Positions 27,185-60,738 of a DNA stretch of 64,000 nt are shown here, piece by piece (the first letter of the stretch is position 1; each line of letters starts with the position of its first letter). Source of the DNA: Ruegeria sp. EL01 (GTDB lineage: Bacteria; Pseudomonadota; Alphaproteobacteria; Rhodobacterales; Rhodobacteraceae); the NCBI RefSeq assembly GCF_900313035.1, contig NZ_OMPS01000042.1, positions 1 to 64,000 of the forward strand. The letters are read 5' to 3'. The translations under genes were made by a program, and so were the position numbers. The notes under the pieces are model-generated. The model was not told the DNA's origin and did no database searches. It saw nothing but the letters and a program-made list of their open reading frames with translations.

Positions 27185-27212
27185 AACTGAGCCCTACTGC
27201 CGACACGCAAGC

Positions 27213-27241: not shown

Positions 27242-27249
27242 CACGTTTC

Positions 27250-28314: not shown

Positions 28315-28513
28315 TTTGCACCGCTTCGCGGCAAAAATCAATTATACGTAATAAGCGATACTTATCGGATGTTATGATGATTTCTGAGGAAGGCAAATGT
28401 AACGAGCAAAAGTAGAGAATTATGAGCGTAAAGCGGGCATGGCTCCTAAGATCACTGTAAAACTCGATTCGGCACTAAAGAAAGTCCGAGATTGCCTTCA
28501 GGGTTCTGTCGCA

Positions 28514-44941: not shown

Positions 44942-44955
44942 CACTTGTATTCCTG

Positions 44956-46002: not shown

Positions 46003-46990
46003 TGAAGAGCTCCCCGCGCACGCTCAAACGGGCGTTTTCTGCGACCGCTTCGGGCGTCGGCACGGTCAGATCCTCCAGAGCCGGCGAGAAAGGCACCGGA
46101 ACATCCATCGCTCCCATCCGGACGACTGGCGCGTCGAGATAGTAGAAAGCTTTCTCAGTGATACGGCTCGCGATTTCAGCTGTAACTCCGAAGTTGCGGT
46201 GTCCTTCATCAATGACGATGGCCCGACTGGTCTTGCGCACTGAATTGAGGATTTTCTCCTCATCTAAGGGGACAATGGTACGCGGATCGATCACTTCGAC
46301 CGAGATGCCGTCGCGTTCAAGTAGCTCGGCTGCCTGCAACGCGACCTGAACCATTGATGAGAGTGCAACCAATGTGATATCACACCCTTCACGCAGGACT
46401 GTGGCCTCGCCGAAGGGTATTAGATACTCCTCTTCTGGCACTGGCGCTTTGTCGTTGTACATCAGTTTGTCTTCGAAAATAACGACTGGATTATCGTCCC
46501 TGATTGCCGTCTTCATCAGGCCTTTGGCTTCGTAGGCGGACGAGGGCAGCGCGACCTTCAATCCCGGTATATGGGCCACAAGGGCATGCAATGATTGCGA
46601 GTGCTGTGCCGCTGAACGGCGCGTTGCACCGAGATTGGTCCGAAGCACCAACGGCACACTAAGCTTGCCGCCCGACATGTAGTGGGTTTTGGCAGCCTGG
46701 TTGCACAGTTGATCCATGACCAGAAACAGGAAGTCACCGAACATCAGGTCGACGATTGGACGCGAGCCTGTCATCGCCGCGCCGACGGCCATACCCATAA
46801 ATCCCGGCTCAGAGATCGGCGTGTCGACGATGCGCTCCGTCCCGAATTCCTCAACCAGACCCGAGAGCACCTTAAAGGGCGTTCCTGCTTCGGCGACGTC
46901 TTCACCGATCAGGAAGATGGACGGATCCCGGCGCATCTCCTCGGCAATCGCCTCGTTTACGGCCGTAGATAGGGTGATTTCTCGGGTCAT
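45992..46990 (-). CDS. 2-oxoacid dehydrogenase E1 component, beta subunit
   Basis: A protein of about 332 residues of the PdhB/AcoB type (REITLSTAVNEAIAEEMRRDPSIFLIGEDVAEAGTPFKV). The N-terminal half provides part of the TPP-binding cleft, with the catalytic Glu region around FLIGEDV, and the transketolase C-domain completes it. It pairs with the alpha subunit encoded 10 bases upstream to decarboxylate a 2-oxo acid. The acetoin or pyruvate type is suggested by overall similarity; the actual acid is unknown. Confidence 0.92.
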   Translation of the reverse strand: MTREITLSTAVNEAIAEEMRRDPSIFLIGEDVAEAGTPFKVLSGLVEEFGTERIVDTPISEPGFMGMAVGAAMTGSRPIVDLMFGDFLFLVMDQLCNQAAKTHYMSGGKLSVPLVLRTNLGATRRSAAQHSQSLHALVAHIPGLKVALPSSAYEAKGLMKTAIRDDNPVVIFEDKLMYNDKAPVPEEEYLIPFGEATVLREGCDITLVALSSMVQVALQAAELLERDGISVEVIDPRTIVPLDEEKILNSVRKTSRAIVIDEGHRNFGVTAEIASRITEKAFYYLDAPVVRMGAMDVPVPFSPALEDLTVPTPEAVAENARLSVRGELFNVA

Positions 46991-47000
46991 AGAAAGTTCC

Positions 47001-48008
47001 TCAAATATAGGCCAGCGCGTTTTCAACACCGGAGAATACGTGCATGTCGACCTCGTTCGAGGGCGGGTATTGAGCGCTCAATGCATACTGCACCGCGGCC
47101 TCGGCATCTGCTTTGACTTCGCCATCGATCCCGACAAGCTCGTCCGATGAAAGGATCCCTTCAGTGACCAGCCATTTTCCGAAATTCGTGATTGGATCGC
47201 GATTTGTTTTCCACTCCGCTTCTTCGTCCTTCGGGCGATAGTACTCTCGATTGATATCCCCGACATGGTGGCCATGGTAACGATATGTCTTCAGCTCAAC
47301 GAAGAACGGTCCTTCACCCTTTCTCGCGCGAGTTACGAGTTTTTGGGCGAGTTCGTTGACCGAGAGCACATCCTGCCCATCGACCGAATGCGCCTCGATG
47401 CCAAAGGCTTCTGCACGCGCAGTCAACGATCCGGCGGCGATCTCATCGGTTTTAGTGTACTCCGAATAGCCGTTGTTTTCGCAGGCATAGATGACCGGCA
47501 GCTTCCACAGCGCGGCCATGTTCATCACTTCGTACCAAAGACCCTGCGCGGTAGCACCGTCACCGAAAAAACAGACAGCGATGTCTTTGGTCCCCAACCG
47601 TTTGGCAGAGAAGGCAGCGCCGGTCGCTATACCCATTGAGCCACCGACAATTGCGTTAGCGCCAAGATTCCCGTGGTGCTGATCTGCAATATGCATCGAG
47701 CCGCCTTTGCCGCGGCAATAGCCCTCCTGCTTGCCCAGCAACTCGCAGAACATCTCCCGGAATTCTGCCCCTTTTGCGACGCAATGCCCATGTCCTCGAT
47801 GCGTGGACGTGATCTTATCGCTGTTCTCCAACGCTTCGCAGATGCCGACGGCAACCGCCTCTTGCCCAGAATACATGTGCGTCAAGCCCGGCATCTTGGC
47901 AGACAGGTAAAGCTGGTTGGCACTGTCTTCAAAGGCCCGGATGCGAACCATCTGCCGGTATATGCGCAAATAGGCCTCGGTATTGTTTTGCTTGGTTTGG
48001 CGAACCAT
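47001..48008 (-). CDS. 2-oxoacid dehydrogenase E1 component, alpha subunit
   Basis: A 335-residue E1-alpha of the PdhA/AcoA type. The thiamine-diphosphate motif is FFGDGATAQG-x(19)-CENN, with the HRGHGHCVAKGAEFREMF and GGSMHIAD loops. With the beta subunit it forms an (alpha-beta)2 decarboxylase. It lies 61 bases downstream of the M24-family gene, in one operon with E1-beta, lipoyl protein, aldehyde dehydrogenase, E2 and E3, which is a complete oxoacid dehydrogenase complex. Confidence 0.92.
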   Translation of the reverse strand: MVRQTKQNNTEAYLRIYRQMVRIRAFEDSANQLYLSAKMPGLTHMYSGQEAVAVGICEALENSDKITSTHRGHGHCVAKGAEFREMFCELLGKQEGYCRGKGGSMHIADQHHGNLGANAIVGGSMGIATGAAFSAKRLGTKDIAVCFFGDGATAQGLWYEVMNMAALWKLPVIYACENNGYSEYTKTDEIAAGSLTARAEAFGIEAHSVDGQDVLSVNELAQKLVTRARKGEGPFFVELKTYRYHGHHVGDINREYYRPKDEEAEWKTNRDPITNFGKWLVTEGILSSDELVGIDGEVKADAEAAVQYALSAQYPPSNEVDMHVFSGVENALAYI

Positions 48009-48069: not shown

Positions 48070-49371
48070 CTAGTAGCGATTTGAAATAGGTAACTCTTCT
48101 GCAGGAAAGAGGCTTATGACCTTGCAACCAGTATCGGTTACGACCACTTCTTCTTCGATTCTGGCGGCCGAATACCCGTCTGTGGCGGGGCAATAGGTCT
48201 CCAGTGCAAACACCATGCCGGTCTGAATTTCCATCGGATTATCCAGCGATACTGCGCGCGAGATAATCGGACGCTCATGCAGTGCCAGCCCCAGGCCATG
48301 CCCGAATTGTAGTCCGAACGCTGAGAGTTCGTCGGGGAATCCAAATTCTTCTGCTTTGGGCCAAACCTTAGCAACCGTGTCAGTAGTGACGCCAGGCTTT
48401 ACAAGAGCAATTGCGGCATCTAGCCATTCGCGACACTTTACGTATGCATCATTCTGGGCCGAAGTTGCCCGTCCGATATTGAACGTGCGGTAGTAACAAG
48501 TGCGGTATCCCTGATAGGATTGCAAAATATCAAAAAAAGCCTGATCGCCGGGCCTGAAATATCGATCGGTGAAATTGTGCGGGTGTGGACTACAGCGCTC
48601 GCCGGAAATCGCATTGATCGCTTCGACATCATCCGAGCCCATCTCGTAAAGCATCTTGTTGGCCATCGCGACAATATCGTTCTCGCGCACGCCCGGCTTC
48701 AGCTCTTGCCAGATCATGTGATAAACCCCGTCCACCATTGAGGCGGCCTGGTTCAGGAGATGTATCTCGTCGACGTTCTTGATCTCACGCGCGCCGAGCA
48801 TGATCTGTTGCCCATCGACGACAATTACGCCAGCTTCCTGCAGTGCGAAAAACATCGCCGTTTCGGCGTAGTCAACGCCGACTGGCATGTCTGCTACACC
48901 CGCCTTCTTGAGCAAGCCGTAGACTTCCTCAGCATATCGTTTCATCAGACCGAAAGAAGGTGGGATAGTACCGCGCATGCCGACAACACCGGCACGCATG
49001 CGCTCAGGATCCAGCCAGTTGCAGTATTCTCGGTGATGAACGGCAGCCGAGCCGAAATCCCAGACGTACGGCTCCTCATCACCTGCCAGCAGAGCGAAGC
49101 GGCACATTTTGTCACGCTCCCACTCTCCGATCTTGGTACCGGAGACGTAGCGAATGTTGTTCACATCAAACAGCAGTAGCGCACCACAGCCAGACTTCTT
49201 CAACGCATCCTTTGCGCGACTGAGGCGATAGCGCCGGAGGCGATCGTGATCAACACGGCGCTCGAAGTCGACTGCCGTATGCCCAAGCGCCGGTATGTGC
49301 CGATCCCATCGCCAATTCGGATCGATGTCTCCGGGTTGTAGAATGCGTGGATTGAGTGCGTCTACGTTCAC
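48070..49371 (-). CDS. M24 metallopeptidase-fold protein (creatinase/DddP-like) with altered metal site
   Basis: About 433 residues from a GTG at 49371 (GGAGG at 5 bases). Creatinase-type N-domain with LLLFDVNNIRYVSGTKIGEWER, then the pita-bread domain. Metal ligands of the family are partly kept: Asp in AFFDILQSYQGY, His in FGHGLGLALHE, Glu in FALETYC and Glu in RIEEEVVV. The second Asp is Cys (YRTCYYRTF instead of DxTRTF). Overall pattern resembles DMSP lyase DddP and creatinase-like amidinohydrolases. It is first in the oxoacid dehydrogenase operon, so it probably opens the substrate of this pathway. Confidence 0.85.
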   Translation of the reverse strand: MNVDALNPRILQPGDIDPNWRWDRHIPALGHTAVDFERRVDHDRLRRYRLSRAKDALKKSGCGALLLFDVNNIRYVSGTKIGEWERDKMCRFALLAGDEEPYVWDFGSAAVHHREYCNWLDPERMRAGVVGMRGTIPPSFGLMKRYAEEVYGLLKKAGVADMPVGVDYAETAMFFALQEAGVIVVDGQQIMLGAREIKNVDEIHLLNQAASMVDGVYHMIWQELKPGVRENDIVAMANKMLYEMGSDDVEAINAISGERCSPHPHNFTDRYFRPGDQAFFDILQSYQGYRTCYYRTFNIGRATSAQNDAYVKCREWLDAAIALVKPGVTTDTVAKVWPKAEEFGFPDELSAFGLQFGHGLGLALHERPIISRAVSLDNPMEIQTGMVFALETYCPATDGYSAARIEEEVVVTDTGCKVISLFPAEELPISNRY

Positions 49372-49963
49372 GATTTCCTCCGTGATTTGTTCACAGCAAC
49401 TCGAACAGGCAAGCGCCTTCATAATTGCTTGTGGACCCCTCATTGAGGAGCTCGTTGAATTCAATAGTGCTGCTGCATCTATGGGGCAGGTAGCCGATAC
49501 AGTCGGAACATGGCGACATAAGTTGTGTGAGACGCCAGCACGAATGACGCAAAACAGCGTCATCGAGCCTTAACATTCTCACCAACAGTGCCGTCGCTGC
49601 CCATTTATGTAGCGAACACTAAAATAATAGGTATCCAGATAATTTTTCAACGTCAAGGTATTATTTAGTAATAACTACAATATTCTAAAAAAATGAATGA
49701 GGTGGAGTAGATAGCCTTGATCCACGACCAGGCGCTTTCCCGCACAGAATGCGCGATAGCCTCTCTGCCCCAAAGCTCCTGCAGAATTCCTGAACCATTG
49801 AAGCTTTTTTAAGATCTGATCGTTGCTTGACCACCCATGGGGACGAGGCTCGGTCGTAAAAACGCAACCGAACAATATATGTCTTTGATAGTTAAGTTAT
49901 GCGTATAAATCCGAAATAGGCGGAAAGACGCACCCGTGTCGAGCCATACCGTAGGGAAGTAAT
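49372..49963. other. Long non-coding region with TetR-type operator and AT-rich segment
   Basis: The gap between the M24 gene and tetR (592 bases) holds the operator copy at 49602-49631 and a second half-site-like stretch (TTATTTAGTAATAA, 49661-49674). It also has a strongly A/T-rich block. No supported gene was found: open frames at 49675-49875 and 49391-49585 are short and without ribosome sites. The promoter of the M24 operon should lie near the operator, giving a leader of roughly 200 bases. Confidence 0.5.
49602..49631. promoter_or_regulatory. TetR-type operator D (upstream of M24/oxoacid dehydrogenase operon)
   Basis: CATTTATGTAGCGAA followed directly by CACTAAAATAATAG. It shares the core of the copies at 50593, 50651 and 59559: TTWATGTAG, then five to six bases, then CACTAAATAATA. 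This copy is the most diverged on its right half. Confidence 0.6.
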
Positions 49964-50581
49964 TTAGTTGATAGAGGATATCATTGCACTTGAAGGCCAG
50001 GCAAGCATTGCGCAGTCCGCTACATCAATCAAGGCCTCAAGATTGGCACCGTTGCGAGCGCGAATGGCCATACCCTGTTGAACCGTAACAAAATAAGTTG
50101 CCAATTTTTGCCAATCCTGCTCCTTGCTCAGAACCTTGTTAGCAACATCGCACTCAAGCTTTCTAAGTAGTCGATGGATGTTTGCGTCACGCAGATTCGC
50201 GAGCAAGTCTCTAATCGCCTCATTCGAGCTGTGCTCGTGCAAGCCCTCCAGCGCTATCATACAGCCCCAAGGCTTGTCTTTACGGCAAAAAACTCTGGCG
50301 CTCACATAAAGTAGTGCTTGCGCCGCCTCAAACCCCGTAGGGGCCTCTTCAATTGCCTTCGCAATAATTGCGCCGTCCGTTTCCAGATAGCGCTCGACCG
50401 CCTCGCAAAACAGCTTCTCCTTTGACCCAAAGGCCGCATAGATACTGGGCGCTTTGAGGGAAAGCGTCTCTTCCAGGTTGATCAACGACGTCCCATCATA
50501 GCCTCGCTGCCAAAACAGGTTCATTGCCAGATTCAATGCCTCGCTGCGGTCAAATTTTCTGGGTCGGCCACGTCCCGCCAT
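49964..50581 (-). CDS. TetR/AcrR-family regulator of the catabolic island
   Basis: About 205 residues from the ATG at 50581. The N-terminal helix-turn-helix is GRPRKFDRSEALNLAMNLFWQRGYDGTSL and LSLKAPSIYAAFGSKEKLF. The C-terminal ligand domain is helical, with GCMIALEGLHEHSS. The gene is divergent from the ABC importer operon and has one palindromic operator copy 12 bases upstream of its start. It is the natural candidate to bind all four copies of that motif. TetR proteins usually repress until a small molecule releases them. Confidence 0.87.
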   Translation of the reverse strand: MAGRGRPRKFDRSEALNLAMNLFWQRGYDGTSLINLEETLSLKAPSIYAAFGSKEKLFCEAVERYLETDGAIIAKAIEEAPTGFEAAQALLYVSARVFCRKDKPWGCMIALEGLHEHSSNEAIRDLLANLRDANIHRLLRKLECDVANKVLSKEQDWQKLATYFVTVQQGMAIRARNGANLEALIDVADCAMLAWPSSAMISSIN

Positions 50582-50592
50582 CTTCACTCTCT

Positions 50593-50622
50593 CTATTAAT
50601 GTAGGTTTCACTAAATAAATAA
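50593..50622. promoter_or_regulatory. TetR-type operator B (upstream of tetR)
   Basis: TATTAATGTA, five bases, CACTAAATAAATAA, starting 12 bases before the tetR ATG. Apart from the five central bases it is identical, in sequence and spacing, to the copy at 59559 over 24 positions. Confidence 0.7.
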
Positions 50623-50650
50623 CTTGACGCATAAGTTCAAGACTTCTATC

Positions 50651-50678
50651 TATTATATAGCGATCACTAAATAATAAG
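50651..50678. promoter_or_regulatory. TetR-type operator C (upstream of ABC importer operon)
   Basis: CTATTATATAGCGAT followed by CACTAAATAATAAGG, located 15 bases before the ATG of the binding-protein gene. The right half-site overlaps the ribosome site (AAGGGGAGG), so binding would block transcription close to translation start. Confidence 0.7.
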
Positions 50679-50692
50679 GGGAGGTAACAAAT

Positions 50693-51775
50693 ATGAAAAT
50701 TGTAAATTCAACCTTAAAGACTGCAATGGCAGGGGTTCTTTCTTGTTTTTTCGCTATTTGCGGGATGTCCGGAGTAGCACTCGCCGACATCGTTGAGGTC
50801 GATGTTGGCCTAGACACTCCAGTGCAGATTGATCGATCCAAGCCCTTGAAAATTGCGCTCTTTATGCGGGGGCAAAGTGTTTCTGGGCTGACGGCTGTCG
50901 TTGATGGCGTCCTTGAGCAGGCCAGTGAACTGGGCGTTGACGTCGATGTATTCAACGCCAATTTTGACAGTGCGACCATGGTTAATCAGATGGAGAATGC
51001 ACTATTGCGGGACTACAACGCTTGGATAGTTTTCCCCACCGACGGAACAAGCGCTGTTTGCAATATGATCACAAATGAAGCGCCTAAGAACAATATTCTT
51101 GTCTCGGTAAATGTCGTGCATGTGTGTGTCGATCCGATGTCCAACGGTATCGATACCTGGGCCCCTGGGACCATCGGATTTGTTGGCGGCAATGAAACAC
51201 TGTCGGCCATGCGCGCATTGGTGGCGCGCGTTTCAGAAGATATCTCAACCCCAACCAAAGTTGGCGTCATGCATGGTCTTGTTGTCAGCCCAGTGGCTAA
51301 AGGCTTAATCCAGGCCGTTGAGGAGGAAGCGGAGCGCAACGCGAATTTTGAGGTTGCGGTCATGGTCGAGTCCAACTGGGACACAACAGACGCGCTTGCA
51401 AAAGCCACGCCCATGCTGCTTGCCAACCGCGAGCTTGATATCGTCATCACGCAACATGCCTTGATGTCACGCGGTATCCTGACGGCCATCGAGGTCAATG
51501 GATATGCCAATCCTGTCGACGTGTACGAGTTCAGCGGCACGAATTGGTCGGCCGACATGGTCAAAGAGGGCAAGCTGAAAGTCACGCTACCATTCTTCTT
51601 GAAAACCAACGGAAAGAGCGGCGTGCGCAACCTTTACGACGTCTACTACAAAGGCGCTGATATTCCAAAGTTCACGGCCAATGATGGACATCCTCCCATC
51701 GAGGGATCCGCGGAAGGCGAATATACGATCATCGACGCCAACAACGTCTCTTCCTTTACCCCAGAATACAACTGA
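50693..51775 (+). CDS. Sugar-type ABC transporter substrate-binding protein (RbsB-like)
   Basis: A 360-residue periplasmic binding protein of the CUT2/ribose group. Residues 1 to about 32 are a Sec signal peptide (ending GVALAD). The body has the periplasmic-binding-protein 4 pattern (KIALFMRGQSVSGLTAVVDGVLEQASELGVDVDVFNA, VFPTDGTSAVCNMI). The ligand is unknown; CUT2 importers also carry autoinducers, polyols and nucleosides. It is first in the importer operon under operator C. Confidence 0.9.
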   Translation: MKIVNSTLKTAMAGVLSCFFAICGMSGVALADIVEVDVGLDTPVQIDRSKPLKIALFMRGQSVSGLTAVVDGVLEQASELGVDVDVFNANFDSATMVNQMENALLRDYNAWIVFPTDGTSAVCNMITNEAPKNNILVSVNVVHVCVDPMSNGIDTWAPGTIGFVGGNETLSAMRALVARVSEDISTPTKVGVMHGLVVSPVAKGLIQAVEEEAERNANFEVAVMVESNWDTTDALAKATPMLLANRELDIVITQHALMSRGILTAIEVNGYANPVDVYEFSGTNWSADMVKEGKLKVTLPFFLKTNGKSGVRNLYDVYYKGADIPKFTANDGHPPIEGSAEGEYTIIDANNVSSFTPEYN

Positions 51776-51782
51776 TCAGCTT

Positions 51783-51812
51783 CCAGCCCCGCGGCCAAGG
51801 CTCCGGGGCTGG
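51783..51812 (+). terminator. Intercistronic stem-loop after the binding-protein gene
   Basis: CCAGCCCCG pairs with CGGGGCTGG around a 12-base loop, 8 bases after the stop of the binding-protein gene and 34 bases before the ATPase gene. There is no T-run, so it probably protects the upstream mRNA or partially terminates, a common feature after binding-protein genes. Confidence 0.6.
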
Positions 51813-51845
51813 GCAACAGTGTACTTTGAAATGTGAGCAAGAGAC

Positions 51846-53363
51846 ATGGGAAAACGGGTCGCAGTACGCAGCAAGGGTTTGTCCAAGAATTTTGGACAGC
51901 TCGAAGCGATATCTTCTGTAGATCTCGAAATAACGGAAGGATCCATTCACGCGCTGGTCGGCGAAAATGGTGCGGGTAAATCGACTTTTCTGTCCATGAT
52001 TTCCGGGCGGCTTCATCCGACCGCTGGTGACCTTCTTATTTTTGGCAATCAAGTGCATCTCGCCTCGCCCCGCGAAGGCCGGTCGGCAGGCATAGTCGGA
52101 ATTTATCAGGAACTTTCAATCGTGCCGGAGATGACGGCGCTAGACAATGTGTTTCTAGGAGAAATACCATCGTTCATGGGCGCGGTAATGTCTTCGGAAA
52201 TGGCCGCCAAATATGGCGAATTGGCTGAGCGCTTGAACGTCAATATAGACCCGCGCAGCAAAGCTGGACGGCTATCTGTCGCTGATCAACAGATCCTCGA
52301 AATCATGAGGGCCGTTCAATTCGATGCCAAAATCATCCTTCTAGACGAGCCCACTGCCGCCCTGGCTCCGGCCGAGAGAAAAGCACTTTTTGCATTAATG
52401 CGGGACCTGCGGGCCAGCGGGCACACGCTGGTTCTGGTTTCGCACAATCTTGATGAAGTCCTCGACATCGCGGACGCGGTAACGGTTTTTCGCAACGGTC
52501 GCTTGATTTCAACCCAACCGAAAAAAAGCTGGACCAAGAGGTCGCTCGTAAAAGCCATGCTGGGCCAGAATGTCGACGACTTGTACAAGCGCCGCGCAGC
52601 GCCAATGTCCTTATCCTCCGAGCCGGAAGTCTTACGGGTTTCAAACTTAACCGTACCCGGCGCTGTCCAGGATATCGAATTGGTCCTTCGCCGCGGAGAA
52701 ATCTTGGGCTTGGGCGGCTTGGTGGGATCAGGGCGAACGACCGTTTTGCGCGCAATAGCCGGAGCAGAGCGAACAGCACAAGGTGACATGGTTCTGATGG
52801 GGAACAAGCGGCAATGGCCTCGCACGGTTCGAGAAGCGCGCCGCGCCGGGATCGGCATTGTTCCCGAAGATCGAAAACTGCAGGGCCTCTTTCTGCATAT
52901 GAAGTCCGGTCAGAACATCGTGATCAGCGATCTTTCCACCTGCACAACTTCCGGAGTTTTGTCGGTCCGCAAACTTAAGGCTGCTGCCTCAAAGGCCGGT
53001 CAGAAGTTTCGACTCGATCCGAAAAGGCTGGATCATTTGGTCGGCACGTTATCCGGTGGAAACCAGCAAAAAGCACTTCTGTCTCGTTGGTGGCACCACC
53101 GCCCGAACATTTTGCTGATCGATGAACCGACACGTGGAATCGACATCGGTGCAAAAGCGGAGATATTGGCCTCTCTGCGCGAAATGGCCAGTGATGGTGT
53201 CGCAATCATAATGGTCTCTTCCGAACTGGAAGAACTGGTCTCCATAGCCGATCGCGTCTCAGTTGTTTCCCAAGGTCAGTCAGTCGGTGAAATCGATGGT
53301 GACGACCTGTCCGTGAACGCAATCCTGAACCGCGCTTTTCAAGTTGAGGAACTTCATGTCTGA
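51846..53363 (+). CDS. ABC transporter ATP-binding protein, tandem ATPase (RbsA type)
   Basis: A 505-residue double ATPase. Domain 1 has Walker A GENGAGKST and Walker B IILLDEPTAALA. Its signature is RLSVADQQ, which is typical of RbsA domain 1. Domain 2 has the modified Walker A GLVGSGRTT, signature LSGGNQQK and Walker B ILLIDEPTRGIDIG. It powers the CUT2 importer with the binding protein upstream and the permease downstream, whose start overlaps its stop by 8 bases. Confidence 0.92.
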   Translation: MGKRVAVRSKGLSKNFGQLEAISSVDLEITEGSIHALVGENGAGKSTFLSMISGRLHPTAGDLLIFGNQVHLASPREGRSAGIVGIYQELSIVPEMTALDNVFLGEIPSFMGAVMSSEMAAKYGELAERLNVNIDPRSKAGRLSVADQQILEIMRAVQFDAKIILLDEPTAALAPAERKALFALMRDLRASGHTLVLVSHNLDEVLDIADAVTVFRNGRLISTQPKKSWTKRSLVKAMLGQNVDDLYKRRAAPMSLSSEPEVLRVSNLTVPGAVQDIELVLRRGEILGLGGLVGSGRTTVLRAIAGAERTAQGDMVLMGNKRQWPRTVREARRAGIGIVPEDRKLQGLFLHMKSGQNIVISDLSTCTTSGVLSVRKLKAAASKAGQKFRLDPKRLDHLVGTLSGGNQQKALLSRWWHHRPNILLIDEPTRGIDIGAKAEILASLREMASDGVAIIMVSSELEELVSIADRVSVVSQGQSVGEIDGDDLSVNAILNRAFQVEELHV

Positions 53364-54342
53364 CACACTTCACAAATCAACCGTTACCATCGCCCCAAAG
53401 AAGCTCCATCAACTGGGTCTTCCGATATTGAAGAGATACACGCTGGCCATCACGCTGGTTCTTTTGGTTTGTGTTTCGCAGTATTTGTATTCAGGCTTCT
53501 TAACCCCAAGCAACATCGTCAACATTTTTGCGCAAAACGCTCCCCTCGGGATTATTGCTGTTGGCATGACTTTGGTCATGATCACCGGCGGTTTTGATCT
53601 CTCGGTGGGTTCCGTGTTTGCAATTGGCGCCACGCTATATACGAGCCTGGTTGTCGGAGGGATGGGATTACTGGAAGCCTTCCTGCTAACCACTCTTGTT
53701 GGTGTTGCCGCTGGATCATTGAATGGGGCTTTAGTAACGCGACTTGATGTGAATCCATTCGTTGCAACTCTTGGCACAATGTCCGTGTTCACCGGTGCAG
53801 CACTTATCTATTCCAATTCACAACCTTATATGACGTCGTCCGCATCCTTCACCCTGCTGGGACGGGGATCCCTTGCGGGTTTGCCCTACTCCATCTGGAT
53901 ACTAGCTGCCTTCATGCTGGCCGGACAGCTGATTTTATCCCTGTCTGTTTATGGACGCCAAATTTATGCCGTTGGAGGAAACACTGAAGCGGCCAGGTTG
54001 GCTGGCCTCAGAGTGGCCGTCGTTCGCGGTTCGACCTACGCGATTTGTAGCGGCTGTGCCGCGGTCGCAGGCATGATCATGGCGTCGCGGCTGGATTTGG
54101 GCCAGGCAGACATGGGTCGAAACATGGCTCTGGATTCCATCGCGGTCGTTGTGATCGGAGGAACCTCCCTTTCGGGTGGGCGCGGCGCCGTTTGGCAAAC
54201 CGCGATCGGCCTTATGCTTGTCGCCGTCCTCACCAATCTGCTCGATAGCCTGGCTGTCAGCGCGAATTATCAATTGCTCATCAAAGGTACAATCGTTGTC
54301 GCGGCGGTCGCATTGGACGCGATTAGCAGGCGTCACACTTAG
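53356..54342 (+). CDS. ABC transporter permease (RbsC type)
   Basis: About 328 residues from the ATG at 53356, preceded by GAGGA; an earlier TTG at 53344 lies in the ATPase gene. Eight to ten membrane helices and the family motif NIFAQNAPLGIIAVGMTLVMITGGFDLSVGS are visible. It forms the homodimeric channel of the CUT2 importer. Confidence 0.92.
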   Translation: MSDTLHKSTVTIAPKKLHQLGLPILKRYTLAITLVLLVCVSQYLYSGFLTPSNIVNIFAQNAPLGIIAVGMTLVMITGGFDLSVGSVFAIGATLYTSLVVGGMGLLEAFLLTTLVGVAAGSLNGALVTRLDVNPFVATLGTMSVFTGAALIYSNSQPYMTSSASFTLLGRGSLAGLPYSIWILAAFMLAGQLILSLSVYGRQIYAVGGNTEAARLAGLRVAVVRGSTYAICSGCAAVAGMIMASRLDLGQADMGRNMALDSIAVVVIGGTSLSGGRGAVWQTAIGLMLVAVLTNLLDSLAVSANYQLLIKGTIVVAAVALDAISRRHT

Positions 54343-54376
54343 AACCAATCCCATGCAACAGACGACGGAGAAACCC

Positions 54377-54718
54377 ATGCCCCACCCCGGAGACAATTTA
54401 TTCGCCTGCATCAGCCAAATTCGAAAACCAGACAGAATTCAAGATCACATGCCTGCACATGTTGATTGGTTGAAGGAGAGGGACCTGGAAGGTCGAGTCG
54501 TGGCGACAGGTGCGCAACTTCCTCTTGGTTCAGGTGGCGTACAGATATTTGCGGCTGCAAACCTTGAAGAAATGGAAGCGATGCTCGCAACGGACCCTCT
54601 CGTCGCGGGGGGCGTGACCGAGAATTGGGTCTTTGAGTTTCAGTTGAATGACGAGCCTAACCGAGGCCGATTGATGAATTATTTTTTCGACGCCTCGTTC
54701 TCAGAGAATAGCAAGTAA
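54377..54718 (+). CDS. YciI-like dimeric alpha/beta-barrel protein
   Basis: A protein of about 113 residues of the YCII fold (HMPAHVDWLKERDLEGRVVATGAQL, LEEMEAMLATDPLVAGGVTENWVFEFQL). The start at 54377 has GGAG at 7 bases. YciI proteins and muconolactone-isomerase-like relatives act on small ring compounds or dienelactones; the conserved Asp/His pair appears as H..DW. It follows the permease by 34 bases, within the TetR-regulated importer operon, so it is probably a catabolic enzyme for the imported compound. Confidence 0.8.
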   Translation: MPHPGDNLFACISQIRKPDRIQDHMPAHVDWLKERDLEGRVVATGAQLPLGSGGVQIFAAANLEEMEAMLATDPLVAGGVTENWVFEFQLNDEPNRGRLMNYFFDASFSENSK

Positions 54719-54747
54719 ATCAAAATTTTAGACGGAAAGAAAAAACG

Positions 54748-55095
54748 ATGAATGCGGATCCGTTTGTTGTCATTGTAACCATGAACCTTAAGCCGGGTGT
54801 CAGCGATGAATTTCATGCTTCGCTTGAACCTGTCTTAAACACAATGCGCTCCGAGGAGACATTTGTGAACACGATTGTCCATACATCAAAGGACAATCCC
54901 AACCATATCATGCTGTACGAAACCTGGCTGGATTACGATGACTTCATCGCCAACCAAATAACGCGACCATATCGCGACGACTACTGGAAGAAACTCGAAG
55001 TTCTTCTGGAGTCACCTCCGGACCGTGAGTTCTTTTTTCCGTTGCGAGGTGATTTCGTATTTCAAAACGGACGGACTCAGAGCCTACCGAAATAG
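54748..55095 (+). CDS. Antibiotic-biosynthesis-monooxygenase (ABM) domain protein
   Basis: A 115-residue ABM/quinol-monooxygenase-like protein (PFVVIVTMNLKPGVSDEFHASLEPVLNTMRSEE, NTIVHTSKDNPNHIMLYETWLDYDDF). Cofactor-free oxygenases and isomerases of this fold often follow ring opening or hydroxylation. It sits 29 bases after the YciI-like gene in the same operon. Sequence identity to the copy at 9362 is low. Confidence 0.82.
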   Translation: MNADPFVVIVTMNLKPGVSDEFHASLEPVLNTMRSEETFVNTIVHTSKDNPNHIMLYETWLDYDDFIANQITRPYRDDYWKKLEVLLESPPDREFFFPLRGDFVFQNGRTQSLPK

Positions 55096-55250
55096 GAAAT
55101 CGACGCGATCCCGACAACTGTCGAATCCAAAGTGATCGTCAGCGCCGAAAGCAAATTCGTGATTGCGCAACAGACGTATCGATCCGGAAGAACTCTCCCG
55201 TTTCTTCTACAGAATTTCCCTGCCAACAAACTCCAACGAAAGGATAAAAA

Positions 55251-55988
55251 ATGGAACTGGAAGGCAAACGAGCTCTCGTCACAGGTGGCGGCAAGGGCAT
55301 GGGCGCTGCGATAGCCAAACGCCTTGCGCAAGAAGGTGCAGACGTTGTCGTGACATACAGCGTGTCTAAAGGGCCGGCCGAGGAGGTAGCCGAAAGCATT
55401 CGAGCTCTGGGTCGAAAGGCGCAGGCTATATCAGCCGACAGTCGTGATGCAGATCAGATAAGATCCGCAGTTCAAGCTGCTGGCGACCTCATGGGCGGTA
55501 TTGATATCGTTGTGAACAATGCGGGGATCTTCAGATGGGGTATGATTGAAGATCTGTCGATCGAGGATTTTGACGACAGTATTTCAGTCAACTTCCGGTC
55601 GGCCTATGTGACCACCAAGGAAGCAATGCAATATATCCCTGATGGCGGAAGAATCATTTTCATAGGATCCAACTTGGCGTCCAGGGCGCACTTTCCTGGA
55701 TTGGCGGCTTACACATCAACCAAGCTTGCCCTTTCTGGCCTGGCCCACGCGCTAGGACGTGAACTGGGTCCACGCGGCATTACGGCAAATGCAATCCACC
55801 CTGGTTCAACCAACACCGACATGAACCCAGCGGATGCAGATGACGCAGACATGAAAGTCGCCGCTGCAGCACGTCAAGCCTTCATGGACACGAGCGAGAT
55901 CGCGGATCTGGTTGTATTTCTTGCTTCCCAAAAGGGTCGTTCAATCACCGGTGCTGATCTAGTCATTGATAACGGCGCCAACGCCTGA
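55251..55988 (+). CDS. Short-chain dehydrogenase/reductase (SDR)
   Basis: A 245-residue classical SDR. Cofactor motif is VTGGGKGMGAAIAKRLA (TGxxxGxG), then NNAG (VVNNAGIFRWG), catalytic Ser in IIFIGSNLASRA, and YTSTKLALSGLAHAL with the Tyr-x3-Lys pair (Y-T-S-T-K). The NADP-type Arg after the first strand is not obvious, so NAD use is possible. It is the last gene of the importer operon, 155 bases after the ABM gene, and is followed by a strong terminator. Confidence 0.9.
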   Translation: MELEGKRALVTGGGKGMGAAIAKRLAQEGADVVVTYSVSKGPAEEVAESIRALGRKAQAISADSRDADQIRSAVQAAGDLMGGIDIVVNNAGIFRWGMIEDLSIEDFDDSISVNFRSAYVTTKEAMQYIPDGGRIIFIGSNLASRAHFPGLAAYTSTKLALSGLAHALGRELGPRGITANAIHPGSTNTDMNPADADDADMKVAAAARQAFMDTSEIADLVVFLASQKGRSITGADLVIDNGANA

Positions 55989-56019
55989 ATCAATCCAATC
56001 ATTGATTTTTGAACCAATG

Positions 56020-56060
56020 ACGCCAGCTGACCTAATTAGTCAGCTGGCGTTTCGCTTTCT
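56020..56060 (+). terminator. Rho-independent terminator of the importer operon
   Basis: ACGCCAGCTGAC and GTCAGCTGGCGT form a perfect 12-bp stem with a 7-base loop (56020-56050), followed by TTCGCTTTCTT. It lies 32 bases after the SDR stop. Confidence 0.85.
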
Positions 56061-56061
56061 T

Positions 56062-56090
56062 AAAAAACGCCGCAGTCAAAGACTGCGGCG
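56062..56090 (-). terminator. Rho-independent terminator of the RidA/amidohydrolase/nitrilase operon
   Basis: On the minus strand CGCCGCAGTC-TTT-GACTGCGGCG is a perfect 10-bp stem followed by six T (56067-56062). It lies 24 bases after the nitrilase stop and faces the terminator of the plus-strand operon, giving a clean convergent boundary. Confidence 0.88.
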
Positions 56091-56113
56091 AGTTGGGGAA
56101 GAAGACCATGTGT

Positions 56114-57088
56114 TCAAGTGGACTGTTGTGACCGATACCAATTCAAATCGGGCAAGTCGTGTGCTTCTTTCAGCATCGGCTCCCTCGTAAGTTCAGGTCG
56201 CCGTAATCCCAATACCCCTGGAACTGAACCGAAGGGGGCCGGTATCTCCAAACCATCTGGGAACTCGGGTGTCTTGCGCATTGCGCGCAATCGTTTCATA
56301 TCCAAATCCGCATATAGTATGCCTTCGTTGGGCATCACGCCCAGTACACCCTCTGGACCCGCGACAATACCTAATCCGCGGTTCAGGCCCTTGCTGTCTC
56401 CCGCAGGAATCTTGCGGCCGCTGTAGTGTTCCATCAGTTCGCGATCAAACAAATTTTGACAAGACGCAGTGTACATGATGTTTTCGATAGCTCGTGCCCG
56501 AACGAGTGTTTGCCAAACGTCTTTCCAACCAAAATCATCCAAAAACCATCCGACGGGCATCAAGAGGATCTCAGCGCCTTTTAGCGCCATAATCCGAGCT
56601 ACCTCGGGTACAAACATTTCACTGCATATCGAAACACCGACCTTTCCCCACCCAAGATCAAACACAGGGAAATCGTCACCTGCGACGTACTCAAAATCAA
56701 CCAGTCCGCCTGACGTATACATGGCCTTGTAGACAGCGCTTTCGGGATGAGTCCTGTGATAGAAACCCAGCACTTCTCCGTGCGCGTTAATCACGACTTG
56801 GCTCACGTAATACGCACCAGGCTTTCCTTCGACAGGCACACTTGTACCCGCGGCAACGGCTATCCCAGCTCGGCGGGCCGCCTCACACAGCGGCTCGACA
56901 ACCTCAAATCGATCCTTGTGAACTGATGGCCCCGGATACATCTCGGGGAAGAGAAGTAAGTCAGCACCTGCATTGCCAGCCTGCTCGATGTAACTTAGAG
57001 CATCGTCCAGCATCTCAGGTGACGAGTCACCCGACTTTGCTTGAACTTGTGCAACGGCTATCTTGATTTGGTCTTTTTGTACGCTCAT
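56114..57088 (-). CDS. Nitrilase-superfamily carbon-nitrogen hydrolase, Lys replaced by Arg
   Basis: About 324 residues from the ATG at 57088. The Glu of the triad is in LLLFPEMYPGP and the nucleophile Cys in VGVSICSEMFVPE. Where the catalytic Lys is expected (G-x-Y-x-K-x-H) the sequence reads GFYHRTHPES, so Lys appears to be Arg. Family members cleave amides, nitriles or carbamoyl groups. It is third in an operon after triple-RidA and an amidohydrolase. The frame opens further to 57166, but that extension overlaps the amidohydrolase gene. Confidence 0.87.
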   Translation of the reverse strand: MSVQKDQIKIAVAQVQAKSGDSSPEMLDDALSYIEQAGNAGADLLLFPEMYPGPSVHKDRFEVVEPLCEAARRAGIAVAAGTSVPVEGKPGAYYVSQVVINAHGEVLGFYHRTHPESAVYKAMYTSGGLVDFEYVAGDDFPVFDLGWGKVGVSICSEMFVPEVARIMALKGAEILLMPVGWFLDDFGWKDVWQTLVRARAIENIMYTASCQNLFDRELMEHYSGRKIPAGDSKGLNRGLGIVAGPEGVLGVMPNEGILYADLDMKRLRAMRKTPEFPDGLEIPAPFGSVPGVLGLRRPELTREPMLKEAHDLPDLNWYRSQQST

Positions 57089-57126
57089 TTTGTTGTCCAC
57101 TTTGTAATTTGACCCCGTTGGATTAC

Positions 57127-58104
57127 TCAGTCTTGTCTGTCGGATGGAAACCCGAACATCGCGCACGGATTGAGTGTCTGAACCTGTTCAGCCAAAGTTT
57201 TCCCGAGCGCTGTATGAAGGCGCGTTATGGGTTTGTCTGGGGCCATGTCGAATGGCAAATCGGTTCCAACGAACACATTTTCTTGCCCAACACGCTGGAC
57301 CAGATAAGCGGTTGCCTGCTCGTCGTGAGTGAGCGAGTCAAACAGAATTCGACCGCAGTAAGACCAGGGATCAGGATTGACATCTACAAGCTCTGGTCTG
57401 ACCGCAATGGCATGACGTAAGCGGCCCAGCTGATAGGGTAGGTTTCCACCGCCATGAACTAAGAGGACACGTAAGTTAGTGTAGCGGTCCAGTAGCCCCG
57501 AACAAATAACCCGCTCGCCCGCAACCATCGTCTCTTGCGGATTCCCAGCAGCATTTTGCAGGTACCAGTCCTCTAAGCCGCGGAATGGGGGATTGTAATA
57601 AGGATGCAGCATAACCAGCATCCCCAGTTCATCAGCAGTCTTCCAGAACCGATCAAACTGCGGTTCATCGGGACGAGAACCCAGAATGAGGGTTGCTATC
57701 TCAACGCCAATGGCACCCTTCGAGTGAGCTTCCCTCAACATGTCACACGCAAGACTCACATCTTGCATCGGAACATGGGCAAACCATCGAAACAGATCAG
57801 GTGCGTAGTTTGAGAATCTGACAAATCCCTCGTTTATCGCCTTGGCATATCGCGCACCCAATTCTGCGGGTAAATCGTAAAAGAAAGTGGGAGGGGCAAC
57901 AGACAAAACCGCGGCGTCAAGCTCATTCGCCTTGAGTTCTTCCAACTTGGGTTCGGGATCCAAGAAAGAGTCCGCAAGGGGAAACGCGAACCCGTCATGC
58001 AGTTTAAGCCAGCCATCATCAAGGCTCGCACCGAAAGCCGGATCAGAGACCAGGATCTCGAGCGCTTCGCGAGGAATGGCATGGTTATGGATGTCGATCT
58101 TCAT
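57127..58104 (-). CDS. Amidohydrolase-2 family decarboxylase/hydrolase (ACMSD-like)
   Basis: A 325-residue TIM-barrel metal enzyme. Zinc ligands are visible as H6 and H8 (KIDIHNHAIP), His in MLHPYYNPPF, and Asp in FVGTDLPFDMAPD. These match 2-amino-3-carboxymuconate-semialdehyde decarboxylase and related aromatic-acid decarboxylases. The start forms an ATGA overlap with the triple-RidA gene. Together with RidA-like deamination and a C-N hydrolase this resembles aminomuconate-type ring-cleavage pathways (inference). Confidence 0.87.
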   Translation of the reverse strand: MKIDIHNHAIPREALEILVSDPAFGASLDDGWLKLHDGFAFPLADSFLDPEPKLEELKANELDAAVLSVAPPTFFYDLPAELGARYAKAINEGFVRFSNYAPDLFRWFAHVPMQDVSLACDMLREAHSKGAIGVEIATLILGSRPDEPQFDRFWKTADELGMLVMLHPYYNPPFRGLEDWYLQNAAGNPQETMVAGERVICSGLLDRYTNLRVLLVHGGGNLPYQLGRLRHAIAVRPELVDVNPDPWSYCGRILFDSLTHDEQATAYLVQRVGQENVFVGTDLPFDMAPDKPITRLHTALGKTLAEQVQTLNPCAMFGFPSDRQD

Positions 58105-59372
58105 GACTTCACCACACAGGTCGGATCAATTTCGACTAGCGGCCCGTCAAACATCATTGTCGTAGAGGGAACGTATGACACCGCCGGTGCTTTGGAAGGA
58201 TCCGGAAAATACTCTCGCCAAACTCTGATGAATCCTCGGTAGTCTCGTTCCGGCTCAATCAGAAACACTCTCACATGGACACAATGTTCCCAATCAGTCC
58301 CGTTCGACTCCATCTGTTTTTTCAGCAATTCGAGGGTAATGCGCGTGTGGGATTCAATCAGAGCCGAGTGATAGGGCAGCCCCTTGGGCGCTTGAGGAAC
58401 ACTTGAAAAATCGTCGCAGGGCACCTGTCCTGCGAAGAACAACCAAGGCCCTGCCTTAATCGTTGGAGAAAAATTCACTTTTCGCTCGTCCGGATGCCAA
58501 TTGATCCCTTCTCTAGGATCCTGCTTTTCGTGTTCATCGTCTGGGACGACGGCAATGAAATTTGGGACAAAAACAGCGCCCGGGACCGTTAAGCCTTTTA
58601 TTCCCATCGAACTGCGTGCGGGCGGGATTGTCATGCGATCACCCCAAACGAGATCAACGTCGTTGAATGTCATCAAATCTGGTTCGTAGAGGTGCGACTC
58701 AACAATGCTCTCTACCGAGCTGCCCGCTTTTTTTAGAACCCTGTCTAAACGATCAAAAACCTTTACGGCTTGCATCGTCGGTTCACTGCCGTAATGAGGG
58801 AAGCCTTCAGGCTTTCCGACGGCCAGACCTGTCTGGAAATCGATCGCTGGAAAACCGGAGCAGAACACCAAGTTTCCAGCGCGCACAGCATCAGGGGCCC
58901 ATTCGAGTTCCATCGGGTCGGGATCGTCGCAGAACGCTTGTTTCTTGAGTCCACTTTCTTTCAACAGTGCGACGGCATCGATATTGAGCAATGCATCCGG
59001 AAACGGAAATGTTTGACCAACCTCTATCACCGTTCGTGCCGGAGGATCATCTGGAAAGAACTTTCGCCAAACAAGCAAGAACTCGTAATAACCTTCGACG
59101 TTTGCGAGATGAACATCGACTTTCACAATCAATTCAGGCGAAGAGCCCATCTCTTCAAGAAGCTTGAATAAGCGTTCAAAGCAAGTCGAAGCCTGTACCG
59201 ACATAGGAGAGGCAACTGTGGTTCCTTGTACCGGATCTGCGCCAACAATGCGTCCCTTGTCATCTTGTGGATATATTGACGAAGTGAAGAGGTAACCGTT
59301 GGCCCTCACTGCATTAGCGAATGGCAAGTTATCTCCCGGCTTGGACCTGGCAAGAACCGCATCTTTTTTCAT
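58101..59372 (-). CDS. Triple-domain RidA-family protein
   Basis: About 423 residues from the ATG at 59372, built of three RidA/YjgF-like domains. Domain 1 is about residues 10-135 (YLFTSSIYPQ, PARTVIEVGQTFPFPDALLNIDAVAL). Domain 2 is about 150-290 (LVFCSGFPAIDFQTG, PARSSMGIKGLTVPGAVFVPNFIAV). Domain 3 is about 305-423 (LFFAGQVPCDD, APAVSYVPSTTMM). Single RidA units form trimers, so this chain could be a covalent trimer with three different clefts; domains 1 and 2 keep the Arg in PAR, domain 3 reads PAV. First gene of its operon, downstream of operator A. Confidence 0.85.
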   Translation of the reverse strand: MKKDAVLARSKPGDNLPFANAVRANGYLFTSSIYPQDDKGRIVGADPVQGTTVASPMSVQASTCFERLFKLLEEMGSSPELIVKVDVHLANVEGYYEFLLVWRKFFPDDPPARTVIEVGQTFPFPDALLNIDAVALLKESGLKKQAFCDDPDPMELEWAPDAVRAGNLVFCSGFPAIDFQTGLAVGKPEGFPHYGSEPTMQAVKVFDRLDRVLKKAGSSVESIVESHLYEPDLMTFNDVDLVWGDRMTIPPARSSMGIKGLTVPGAVFVPNFIAVVPDDEHEKQDPREGINWHPDERKVNFSPTIKAGPWLFFAGQVPCDDFSSVPQAPKGLPYHSALIESHTRITLELLKKQMESNGTDWEHCVHVRVFLIEPERDYRGFIRVWREYFPDPSKAPAVSYVPSTTMMFDGPLVEIDPTCVVKS

Positions 59373-59558
59373 AGTCGTCTGTTTCCCATATTTCTCTGCC
59401 CCACAGTCTGAGGCCTGCCTTCGTCCCTCACCGAAAGCATCCATGCGGAGGCGCTAAGCCTGACCAATCAGCGGGGCCTCTCGAGATCCTTTGGTCACTT
59501 CAAACGCTGAATTCTCTCTACATGGCTTGCGGCCGACAATTGATTTGAAGATCAGCAG

Positions 59559-59590
59559 CTTATTAATGTAGTGGACACTAAATAAATAAG
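59559..59590. promoter_or_regulatory. TetR-type operator A (upstream of triple-RidA operon)
   Basis: CTTATTAATGTAGTG-GA-CACTAAATAAATAAG is the most symmetric copy: the two 15-base halves are inverted repeats with 13 of 15 matches. The motif recurs before tetR, before the ABC importer and before the M24 operon. Confidence 0.75.
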
Positions 59591-59690
59591 CTATCGAGGA
59601 CGGCAGTGTCAACCCCTCTAGTTTTGCAGCCGGGGCAAGCTCTCCACCAATGCCACGAAAAAGCTTTCGGGCAAACTAATCTGATAAGAT

Positions 59691-60705: not shown

Positions 60706-60738
60706 ATTGTCCTCGTTCGTCTGGGGTTAAGCGATGCG

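What the first reader, a model, noticed from the sequence alone, without database searches (positions are those of the whole stretch)
49602..59590. One palindromic operator links three operons of a 41-59 kb catabolic island
A motif of about 30 bp, best seen as CTTATTAATGTAGTG-GA-CACTAAATAAATAAG at 59559, recurs upstream of tetR (50593), of the ABC importer (50651) and of the M24/oxoacid dehydrogenase operon (49602). Copies A and B are identical over 24 aligned positions with equal spacing. A TetR gene sits among them. This unites about 18 genes into one probable regulon: import, M24-type opening, aldehyde and 2-oxoacid oxidation, RidA-type deamination, ACMSD-like decarboxylation and amide hydrolysis. 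I know of no described pathway with this set.
Basis: partly seen in the sequence, partly recalled or inferred. Interest (0 to 1): 0.85.

Follow-up and report, generated by a model that had tools for sequence, protein, structure and literature searches.

The report
One repressor, five operators, three operons
A bacterial repressor gene and three neighbouring groups of catabolic genes carry the same DNA switch, with no other good copy found in that genome, so about 17 genes are probably turned on together, although what they break down is still unknown.

Summary
The palindromic motif is real. A strict pattern made from the five finds no sixth in the 5.32 Mb genome, and each held-out site scores 20.6-24.8 against at most 11.4 elsewhere in the window. 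Four copies overlap or adjoin the -10 of a plausible promoter. The TetR is the likely binder. Its nearest solved relative is CifR, and upstream regions of 17 of 19 TetR homologues examined carry the motif, 7 of 7 in a later test set. The ancestral unit appears to be TetR, two operators about 56 bp apart, and a divergent SDR gene. In the window that SDR lies behind an importer, and operators also stand before two further operons, giving 17 genes. The catabolic reading is weaker. The M24 protein is not a canonical M24 hydrolase (one metal-ligand Asp is Cys in 130 of 130 relatives), the E2 of the 2-oxoacid complex is split, and no substrate can be named. Regulation is well supported by sequence but untested at the bench.

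The parts
49604..49627 (+). operator O1, adjoining the predicted -10 of the M24 operon promoter
50596..50619 (+). operator O3, overlapping the predicted tetR -10 and just upstream of the importer -35
50652..50675 (+). operator O4, at the predicted -10/+1 of the importer promoter, 56 bp from O3
59563..59586 (+). operator O5, overlapping the predicted -10 of the RidA operon promoter
49628..49656 (-). predicted M24 operon promoter, TTGACG, 17 nt, TACCTA (7 of 12; other hexamer pairs in the region score higher)
   Evidence: chosen for its likeness to the importer promoter
50624..50652 (+). predicted importer promoter, TTGACG, 17 nt, TATCTA (8 of 12)
   Evidence: hexamer and spacing match only
50612..50640 (-). 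predicted tetR promoter, TTGAAC, 17 nt, TATTTA (7 of 12)
   Evidence: hexamer and spacing match only
59583..59612 (-). predicted RidA operon promoter, TTGACA, 18 nt, TATTTA (9 of 12)
   Evidence: hexamer and spacing match only
49964..50581 (-). tetR, CifR-like TetR family repressor (205 aa)
   Evidence: PF00440 37.4 bits; CifR chain 6nsn E 6.7e-39
41222..42601 (-). dihydrolipoyl dehydrogenase (E3), last gene of operon 1
   Evidence: TIGR01350 476.5 bits, cutoff 408.8
42610..43500 (-). E2 acyltransferase without a lipoyl domain (296 aa)
   Evidence: PF00198 E 9.9e-77; alignment A3; start
43511..44959 (-). aldehyde dehydrogenase, succinate-semialdehyde type
   Evidence: PF00171; TIGR01780 533 bits, below cutoff 646
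44956..46002 (-). lipoyl-bearing protein with E3-binding motif and an unassigned C-terminal domain
   Evidence: PF00364 E 4.2e-18, PF02817 22 bits just below its cutoff 23.7; A2; hhalign
45992..47029 (-). E1 beta
   Evidence: NF006667 401 bits, cutoff 321
47001..48008 (-). E1 alpha
   Evidence: PF00676 E 4.3e-77
48070..49371 (-). M24-family protein with D-C-H-E-E in place of the usual ligand set; first gene of operon 1
   Evidence: PF00557 E 9.6e-37
50693..51775 (+). periplasmic binding protein, ribose type; first gene of operon 2
   Evidence: PF13407 E 4.4e-22
51846..53363 (+). importer ATPase
   Evidence: PF00005
53344..54342 (+). importer permease
   Evidence: PF02653 E 2.7e-36
54377..54718 (+). 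YciI-like protein (start inferred)
   Evidence: PF03795; start
54748..55095 (+). ABM-fold protein
   Evidence: PF03992
55251..55988 (+). SDR oxidoreductase, 43-53% identical to the SDR beside nine TetR homologues elsewhere
56019..56051 (+). 13-bp hairpin with T-rich tail, probable terminator of operon 2
   Evidence: 12 terminator-like sites in the region, shuffles 7.5; this is the longest stem
56068..56090 (-). 10-bp hairpin and T run, probable terminator of operon 3
   Evidence: second longest stem
56114..57088 (-). carbon-nitrogen hydrolase (start inferred)
   Evidence: PF00795 E 8.6e-37; start
57127..58104 (-). Amidohydro_2 protein, ACMSD-like
   Evidence: PF04909; nearest chains ACMSD E 2.5e-29
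58101..59372 (-). three fused RidA domains (423 aa); first gene of operon 3
   Evidence: PF01042, 3 stretches

Best explanation
The CifR-like TetR at 49964-50581 is a local repressor that binds five copies of a 24-bp palindrome (consensus TTTATTTAGTGATCACTAAATAAA). It represses its own gene and three operons (17 genes with tetR itself) by covering the -10/+1 region of their promoters, and a small molecule releases it. Two operators 56 bp apart flank the divergent tetR/importer promoters, and a second pair with the same spacing flanks the M24 promoter. The ancestral unit, seen in other Alphaproteobacteria, is TetR, two operators, and a divergent SDR gene. Here an importer has come between promoter and SDR, and operators also stand before a 2-oxoacid-dehydrogenase operon and a RidA operon. 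Shown by computation: the sites, the lack of other good copies in the genome, their place relative to predicted promoters, the match to TetR homologues. Inferred: binding, repression, the inducer (perhaps a reactive carbonyl or electrophilic intermediate, by analogy with CifR), and joint use of the 17 genes to import and degrade one unidentified, probably nitrogen-containing, compound.
For: Exactly five exact matches in 5.32 Mb to the pattern of their shared positions. Leave-one-out scores 20.6-24.8 against at most 11.4 for any non-site in the window. A matrix from the window sites alone hits the upstream regions of 10 of 12 TetR homologues of the first set at 14.5 or more, two being weak (5.6 and 4.8), and 7 of 7 of a second set fetched afterwards (12.4-23.9, none of 1000 shuffles as high; best score elsewhere in those loci 5.2). 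A matrix from palindromes chosen in the first 12 loci without reference to the window ranks the five sites 1, 2, 3, 8 and 9 of 63,977 positions with two palindromes a locus, and 1, 4, 8, 18 and 29 with one. Paired spacing of 56 bp in both window pairs, 49-57 in the 9 of 12 first-set loci where both sites score at least 5, and 51-65 in 6 of 7 second-set loci by the same rule. Operators at or next to the predicted -10 in four promoters. Hairpins bounding operons 2 and 3. An SDR relative divergent from TetR in 9 of the 10 homologue loci with TetR identity of 38% or more. Only one TetR of this subfamily in the genome at E 1e-25, 10 of 20 first-look candidates having been scored.
Against: No binding, expression or growth data. 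Two of 19 homologue loci have only a weak motif (L022 5.6, L025 4.8; shuffle p 0.038 each), and none of the nine same-family TetR loci (32-37% identity, from 7 genomes) has the SDR partner within 1.5 kb. The 19 loci are not all independent (three are from one genome), and the plasmid ones were picked by hand from 944 records with a match. The genome holds 23 TetR-type proteins, and another could share the operator. The long leaders before M24 (about 230 nt) and RidA (about 190 nt) are unexplained; Rfam finds no known RNA. The promoter hexamers are partial matches (7-9 of 12), the M24 one is not the best pair in its region, and the generic scan found no promoter excess (3 against 2.0 and 1 against 4.9 in shuffles). 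The matrix test with one palindrome a locus is weaker (worst rank 29). RidA and M24 relatives share a contig length in only one case in the top-120 lists (47405, lengths above 15,000 compared), so the two operons are seldom linked elsewhere.
Confidence: 0.82

Rival explanations
1. The operator links only tetR and the importer-SDR operon functionally; the copies before the M24 and RidA operons are weaker or relic sites and those operons answer mainly to other regulators.
For: The M24 and RidA operators are about 190-230 nt from the genes. The paralogous M24 operon on contig 28 has no such operator (best score 7.6), so the module can work without it. A homologue-derived matrix scores O2 low (15.6 against 26.5 for O4), though tetR's own O3 scores lower still (14.7).
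Against: O5 is the most complete palindrome (12 of 15 pairs) and, like O1, sits at a predicted -10. With the five-site matrix O1, O2 and O5 score 27.0, 24.9 and 28.2, against 10.1 for the best non-site in the window.
Confidence: 0.12
2. A different regulator binds this palindrome, and the TetR among the sites is a bystander.
For: The genome has 23 TetR-type proteins and a LysR lies at 61299-62264.
Against: The motif tracks this TetR subfamily in other genomes: 17 of 19 loci examined, with differing neighbours in the same-family set.
Confidence: 0.04
3. The repeats are a repetitive element or a chance AT-rich similarity, not operators.
For: The sites are AT-rich in a region of 51-53% GC, and the two pairs share some flanking sequence.
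Against: No exact match outside the five promoter places in 5.32 Mb; similar position relative to predicted promoters; conservation beside TetR homologues.
Confidence: 0.02

Closest known systems
CifR of Pseudomonas aeruginosa (TetR family, epoxide-responsive repressor of the cif operon)
   Same: Aligned over 196 residues, E 6.7e-39; the Cys of the P-x-G-C motif is conserved. PMC8244358 (passages read) states that CifR represses the divergently transcribed cif operon and that certain epoxides make it release the DNA; the title of Ballok et al. 2012, seen in its reference list only, speaks of two binding sites.
   Different: No Cif-like gene lies next to it; the only alpha/beta hydrolase I identified is at 31250-32098, 18 kb away and without an operator. 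The window regulator has five sites over three operons. CifR operator letters were not available (paper not held).
TetR-SDR divergons of Sinorhizobium meliloti, Shinella, Azospirillum and six unnamed Alphaproteobacteria
   Same: TetR 38-46% and SDR 43-53% identical, same palindrome class, operators 56-57 bp apart in 7 of these 9 loci, 51 and 65 in the other two.
   Different: There one short intergenic region with one divergent SDR; here an importer precedes the SDR and two more operons carry the operator.
AcuR of Rhodobacter sphaeroides (acuR-acuI-dddL)
   Same: TetR family repressor whose operator overlaps the promoter (PMC3017554, passages read).
   Different: Its operator is TAATAGAC-n6-GTCTATTA, a different palindrome; the window TetR scores 25.8 bits against the AcuR model cutoff of 247.
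M24 / 2-oxoacid dehydrogenase module on four Rhodobacterales plasmids (Phaeobacter, Marinovum, Pacificitalea, strain SC52)
   Same: M24, E1 alpha, E1 beta, lipoyl protein, ALDH, lipoyl-less E2 in the same order; E3 follows in Phaeobacter.
   Different: There the module stands beside a different sugar-type importer, two SDR genes and a solute-binding-like protein; matrix scores in those loci reach at most 10.4, so the operator is not there.

Membership tests
TetR/AcrR family repressor | N-terminal TetR_N helix-turn-helix | tested here: met
   PF00440 37.4 bits, cutoff 24
TetR/AcrR family repressor | palindromic operator overlapping own and target promoters | tested here: met
   sequence level only, predicted promoters
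CifR-like subgroup | closest sequence relationship to CifR along the whole chain | tested here: met
   among solved structures: E 6.7e-39, query 1-196 to chain 3-198
CifR-like subgroup | release by epoxides | not testable with these tools
   needs a binding assay
AcuR | NCBIfam AcuR model cutoff | tested here: not met
   25.8 bits against 247
DMSP lyase DddP (M24 family) | NCBIfam DddP model cutoff | tested here: not met
   99.7 bits against 600
M24 metallopeptidase | five metal ligands D-D-H-E-E (recalled from general knowledge) | tested here: not met
   second Asp is Cys in 130 of 130 relatives (the 120 listed of 8000 scored, plus 10 from loci), in the window protein and in 3 of 3 actinobacterial plasmid copies; the other four positions kept in 130 of 130
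2-oxoacid dehydrogenase complex | E1, E2 catalytic and E3 components | tested here: met
2-oxoacid dehydrogenase complex | E2 with its own lipoyl domain | tested here: not met
   lipoyl domain lies on a separate protein
RidA | conserved active-site Arg (recalled) | tested here: inconclusive
   present in domains 1 and 2 in 22 of 22 sequences aligned, absent in domain 3 in 22 of 22
ACMSD | active-site residues for substrate binding | not tested
   nearest solved chains are ACMSD (E 2.5e-29); the alignment call returned nothing at the threshold I set

The most novel reading that the evidence does not exclude
A two-gene TetR-SDR switch has grown into a multi-operon catabolic regulon by copying of its paired-operator promoter cassette in front of unrelated operons on a plasmid-like replicon, and the regulon serves an undescribed degradation route that uses an M24-fold enzyme with a Cys in the metal site and a split E2 acyltransferase.
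Probability: 0.35. Interest if true: 0.65.

Novelty: new variant of a known kind. Interest (0 to 1): 0.48.

Why it matters
It gives a well-bounded predicted regulon in which the regulator, its five sites, the promoters and the ends of two operons can be tested directly. It also points to an uncharacterised M24 / split-E2 module; its M24 protein is in 14 of 385 class-level genomes searched (E 1e-150), with relatives on actinobacterial plasmids too. If the copying reading holds, it is a clear case of a local repressor being widened into a multi-operon regulon by the spread of its paired operators, with simpler units (TetR plus SDR) still visible in other genomes.

Tried and rejected
Riboswitch or other known RNA in the long leaders: Rfam gave 0 matches in the window at gathering thresholds. 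A tetR relic beyond O2, which whole-region duplication would predict: none (best tblastn E 0.11). Direct homology of the M24 promoter region to the tetR-importer intergenic region: local score 34 against a maximum of 29 in 1000 shuffles, but the aligned stretch is the operator and the -35 box, so copying and convergence are not separated. DddP, AcuR and canonical M24 peptidase were rejected. Genomes with the whole island: the RidA protein at E 1e-80 is in 1 of 390 order-level genomes, the own genome only; the binding protein at E 1e-50 is in 1 of 385 class-level genomes, own only. The first genome-contig scan found no relative of the RidA protein. The second, with an alignment, found nine loci (best-segment identity 38-56%); in the seven of them that I scanned for window homologues the island is absent, though L046 has an amidohydrolase relative near the RidA gene. 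The homologue-like pattern TTNTGTATCGATCGATACANAA has 0 matches in the genome at up to 3 mismatches, so the window operators are a diverged version. Of the paper-search listings, none showed the module, a split E2 of this kind or a TetR-SDR operator; a homarine search led nowhere. No terminator was found after operon 1.

Full report
Observation. The reported motif is at 59559-59590, with further copies near 50593, 50651 and 49602. Written as 24-mers on one axis the sites are O1 49604-49627, O3 50596-50619, O4 50652-50675 and O5 59563-59586. A pattern made from these four and run over the whole genome turned up a fifth, O2, at 49660-49683 on the minus strand. O5 is the most complete palindrome (12 of 15 pairs). 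The strict pattern of positions that do not vary among the five occurs exactly five times in 5,320,417 bases, only at these places. It was derived from the sites themselves, so the informative part is the absence of any other match. At up to 1 mismatch it gives 11 rows, 4 of them (3 places) elsewhere; the backward control gives 40. In leave-one-out tests each held-out site scores 20.6-24.8, while no other place in the window exceeds 11.4.

Promoters. O4 touches TTGACG-17-TATCTA before the importer, O1 adjoins TTGACG-17-TACCTA before M24, O5 overlaps TTGACA-18-TATTTA before the RidA gene, and O3 overlaps TTGAAC-17-TATTTA of tetR. From the -35 start to the operator axis the distances are about 40, 41, 38 and 33 bases, so the axes fall close to the expected +1. 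These are partial matches (8, 7, 9 and 7 of 12), and in the M24 region two other pairs reach 9 of 12; one of these, TTGAAA-18-TATTTT, also has its -10 inside O1. A generic promoter scan found no excess over shuffles (3 against 2.0, and 1 against 4.9). The assignments therefore rest on geometry and not on hexamer quality. O3 and O4 are 56 bp apart, and so are O2 and O1.

Operons. Operon 1 runs from M24 (start 49371) through E1 alpha, E1 beta, lipoyl protein, ALDH and E2 to E3, with gaps of 61 bases or less; no terminator was found after it. Operon 2 runs from the binding protein through ATPase, permease, YciI and ABM to the SDR (the gap before the SDR is 155 bases), and is followed by a 13-bp hairpin at 56019-56051. 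Operon 3 runs from RidA through the amidohydrolase to the CN hydrolase, and is followed by a 10-bp hairpin at 56090-56068. These are the two longest stems of 12 terminator-like sites found in that region, shuffles giving 7.5 on average. With tetR this makes 17 genes.

Which protein binds. The TetR (PF00440) has CifR of Pseudomonas aeruginosa as its nearest solved relative (E 6.7e-39, whole chain). A matrix made only from the window sites was run on the upstream regions of TetR homologues found by protein or DNA similarity. The first set has nine loci of seven same-family genomes, two plasmid loci picked from 944 records with a match and Azospirillum. In it 10 of 12 have a site of 14.5 or more and two are weak, L022 5.6 and L025 4.8 (shuffle p 0.038 each); for the other ten at most 0.2% of shuffles reach the score. 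In a second set fetched after the matrix was fixed, 7 of 7 have a site (12.4-23.9; none of 1000 shuffles reached it; best score elsewhere in those loci 5.2). In the reverse direction, palindromes chosen in the first 12 loci without the window matrix give a matrix that ranks the five window sites 1, 2, 3, 8 and 9 of 63,977 positions if two palindromes a locus are used, and 1, 4, 8, 18 and 29 if one is used. The homologue consensus is TTTATGTATCGATCGATACAGAAA and the window consensus TTTATTTAGTGATCACTAAATAAA.

Origin. Of the ten homologue loci with TetR identity of 38% or more (L061, L062, L081, L084-L090), nine, all but L090, have an SDR gene divergent from TetR, 43-53% identical to the SDR at the end of operon 2; in seven of the nine the two best sites are 56-57 bp apart, in the other two 51 and 65. 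The nine same-family loci (32-37%) lack that SDR within 1.5 kb. The simplest reading is that TetR, paired operators and SDR form the old unit; in the window an importer has come between, and operators have appeared before two more operons. The importer's ATPase and permease are 52% and 60% identical to those of a Pararhizobium plasmid cluster that also has an ABM protein and SDR genes. The M24 operon has a paralogue in the same genome on contig 28 (M24 83% identical), beside an SDR and without the operator (best matrix score 7.6). The same module lies on four Rhodobacterales plasmids, again without it (at most 10.4). Whether the M24 promoter region was copied from the tetR-importer region is not settled, and no tetR relic is present. 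The contig carries ParA, ParB, an integrase and two IS240-type transposases, so it is plasmid-like.

Mechanism. Most likely TetR dimers cover the -10/+1 regions and block RNA polymerase until a ligand binds. CifR is released by certain epoxides (PMC8244358, passages read), and the Cys of its P-x-G-C motif is conserved here, so a reactive intermediate is a candidate inducer; this is inference. The pathway itself cannot be named. The importer is of ribose type; the RidA, CN-hydrolase and amidohydrolase genes suggest a nitrogen-containing compound; the E1/E2/E3 and ALDH genes suggest oxidation of a 2-oxoacid or cleavage of an acyloin followed by aldehyde oxidation. In three 1.4-Mb genomes the M24, E1 and ALDH genes stand beside inositol-type genes (Pfam run on one of them, L074), which points to cyclitol-like substrates for the module in that setting.

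Unusual proteins. In the M24 family the position aligned with the second metal-binding Asp of PepE, Xaa-Pro aminopeptidase and DddP structures (that these Asp bind metal is recalled) is Cys in 130 of 130 relatives aligned, with D, H, E and E kept, and Cys also in the window protein and in three actinobacterial copies. The lipoyl domain lies on a separate protein and the E2 has none. The lipoyl protein's C-terminal domain aligns nearly end to end with the E2 catalytic domain at a pairwise P of 0.0011, against 0.76 for the reversed control, but with a probability of only 20%. It may be a degenerate acyltransferase domain; the acyltransferase domain is not among the 25 of 31 Pfam families shown for 44 relatives. 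The RidA protein is three fused domains, the third without the conserved Arg.

Verdict. The metabolic claim is a list of resemblances; one of them, the M24-type opening, is doubtful. Novelty is a new variant of a known kind, a TetR divergon widened into a multi-operon regulon.

Noticed in passing
window 48070-49371; relatives: M24-family protein in which a metal-ligand Asp is replaced by Cys in 130 of 130 relatives aligned; found in 14 of 385 class-level genomes, with relatives on actinobacterial plasmids.
   Followed up: partly
window 42610-43500 and 44956-46002: Split E2: the catalytic E2 lacks a lipoyl domain, which lies on a separate protein; the arrangement is kept on four Rhodobacterales plasmids. 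The window copy has one lipoyl domain where 40 of 44 aligned rows have two.
   Followed up: partly
G000 contig 28, L063:8133-13920: Second M24 / E1 / lipoyl / ALDH operon in the same genome (M24 83% identical) without the operator.
   Followed up: partly
window 58101-59372: Three fused RidA domains; domains 1 and 2 keep the conserved Arg and domain 3 does not, in 22 of 22 sequences aligned.
   Followed up: partly
L070, L071, L074: In 1.4-Mb genomes the M24-E1-ALDH genes stand beside inositol-type genes (KduI/IolB, PfkB kinase, class II aldolase, Gfo/Idh by Pfam in L074).
   Followed up: partly
L063:14830-16650, L057:9419-11110, L074:1807-3492: A 560-610 aa protein next to the M24 module, annotated as solute-binding in L057; in L057 and L074 Pfam finds a solute-binding domain after about 170-200 residues outside Pfam (L063 not scanned). 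It could be a sensor or regulator.
   Followed up: no
L058 (Paenarthrobacter plasmid): M24 and RidA genes lie near the flavin reductase gene sulR, predicted as a sulfonamide resistance gene.
   Followed up: no
window 24773-28341, 28601-29281, 40449-41147: ParA, ParB and an integrase, and two IS240-type transposases, suggest that the 65.9-kb contig is a plasmid.
   Followed up: partly
window 59740-61020 and 61299-62264: Metallo-beta-lactamase-fold protein (AidB lactonase model 223 bits, cutoff 360), a DUF1330 gene and a LysR gene stand beside the RidA operon; not counted in the regulon.
   Followed up: no
window 31250-32098: Alpha/beta hydrolase (Abhydrolase_1) 18 kb from the CifR-like TetR; no operator there.
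   Followed up: no
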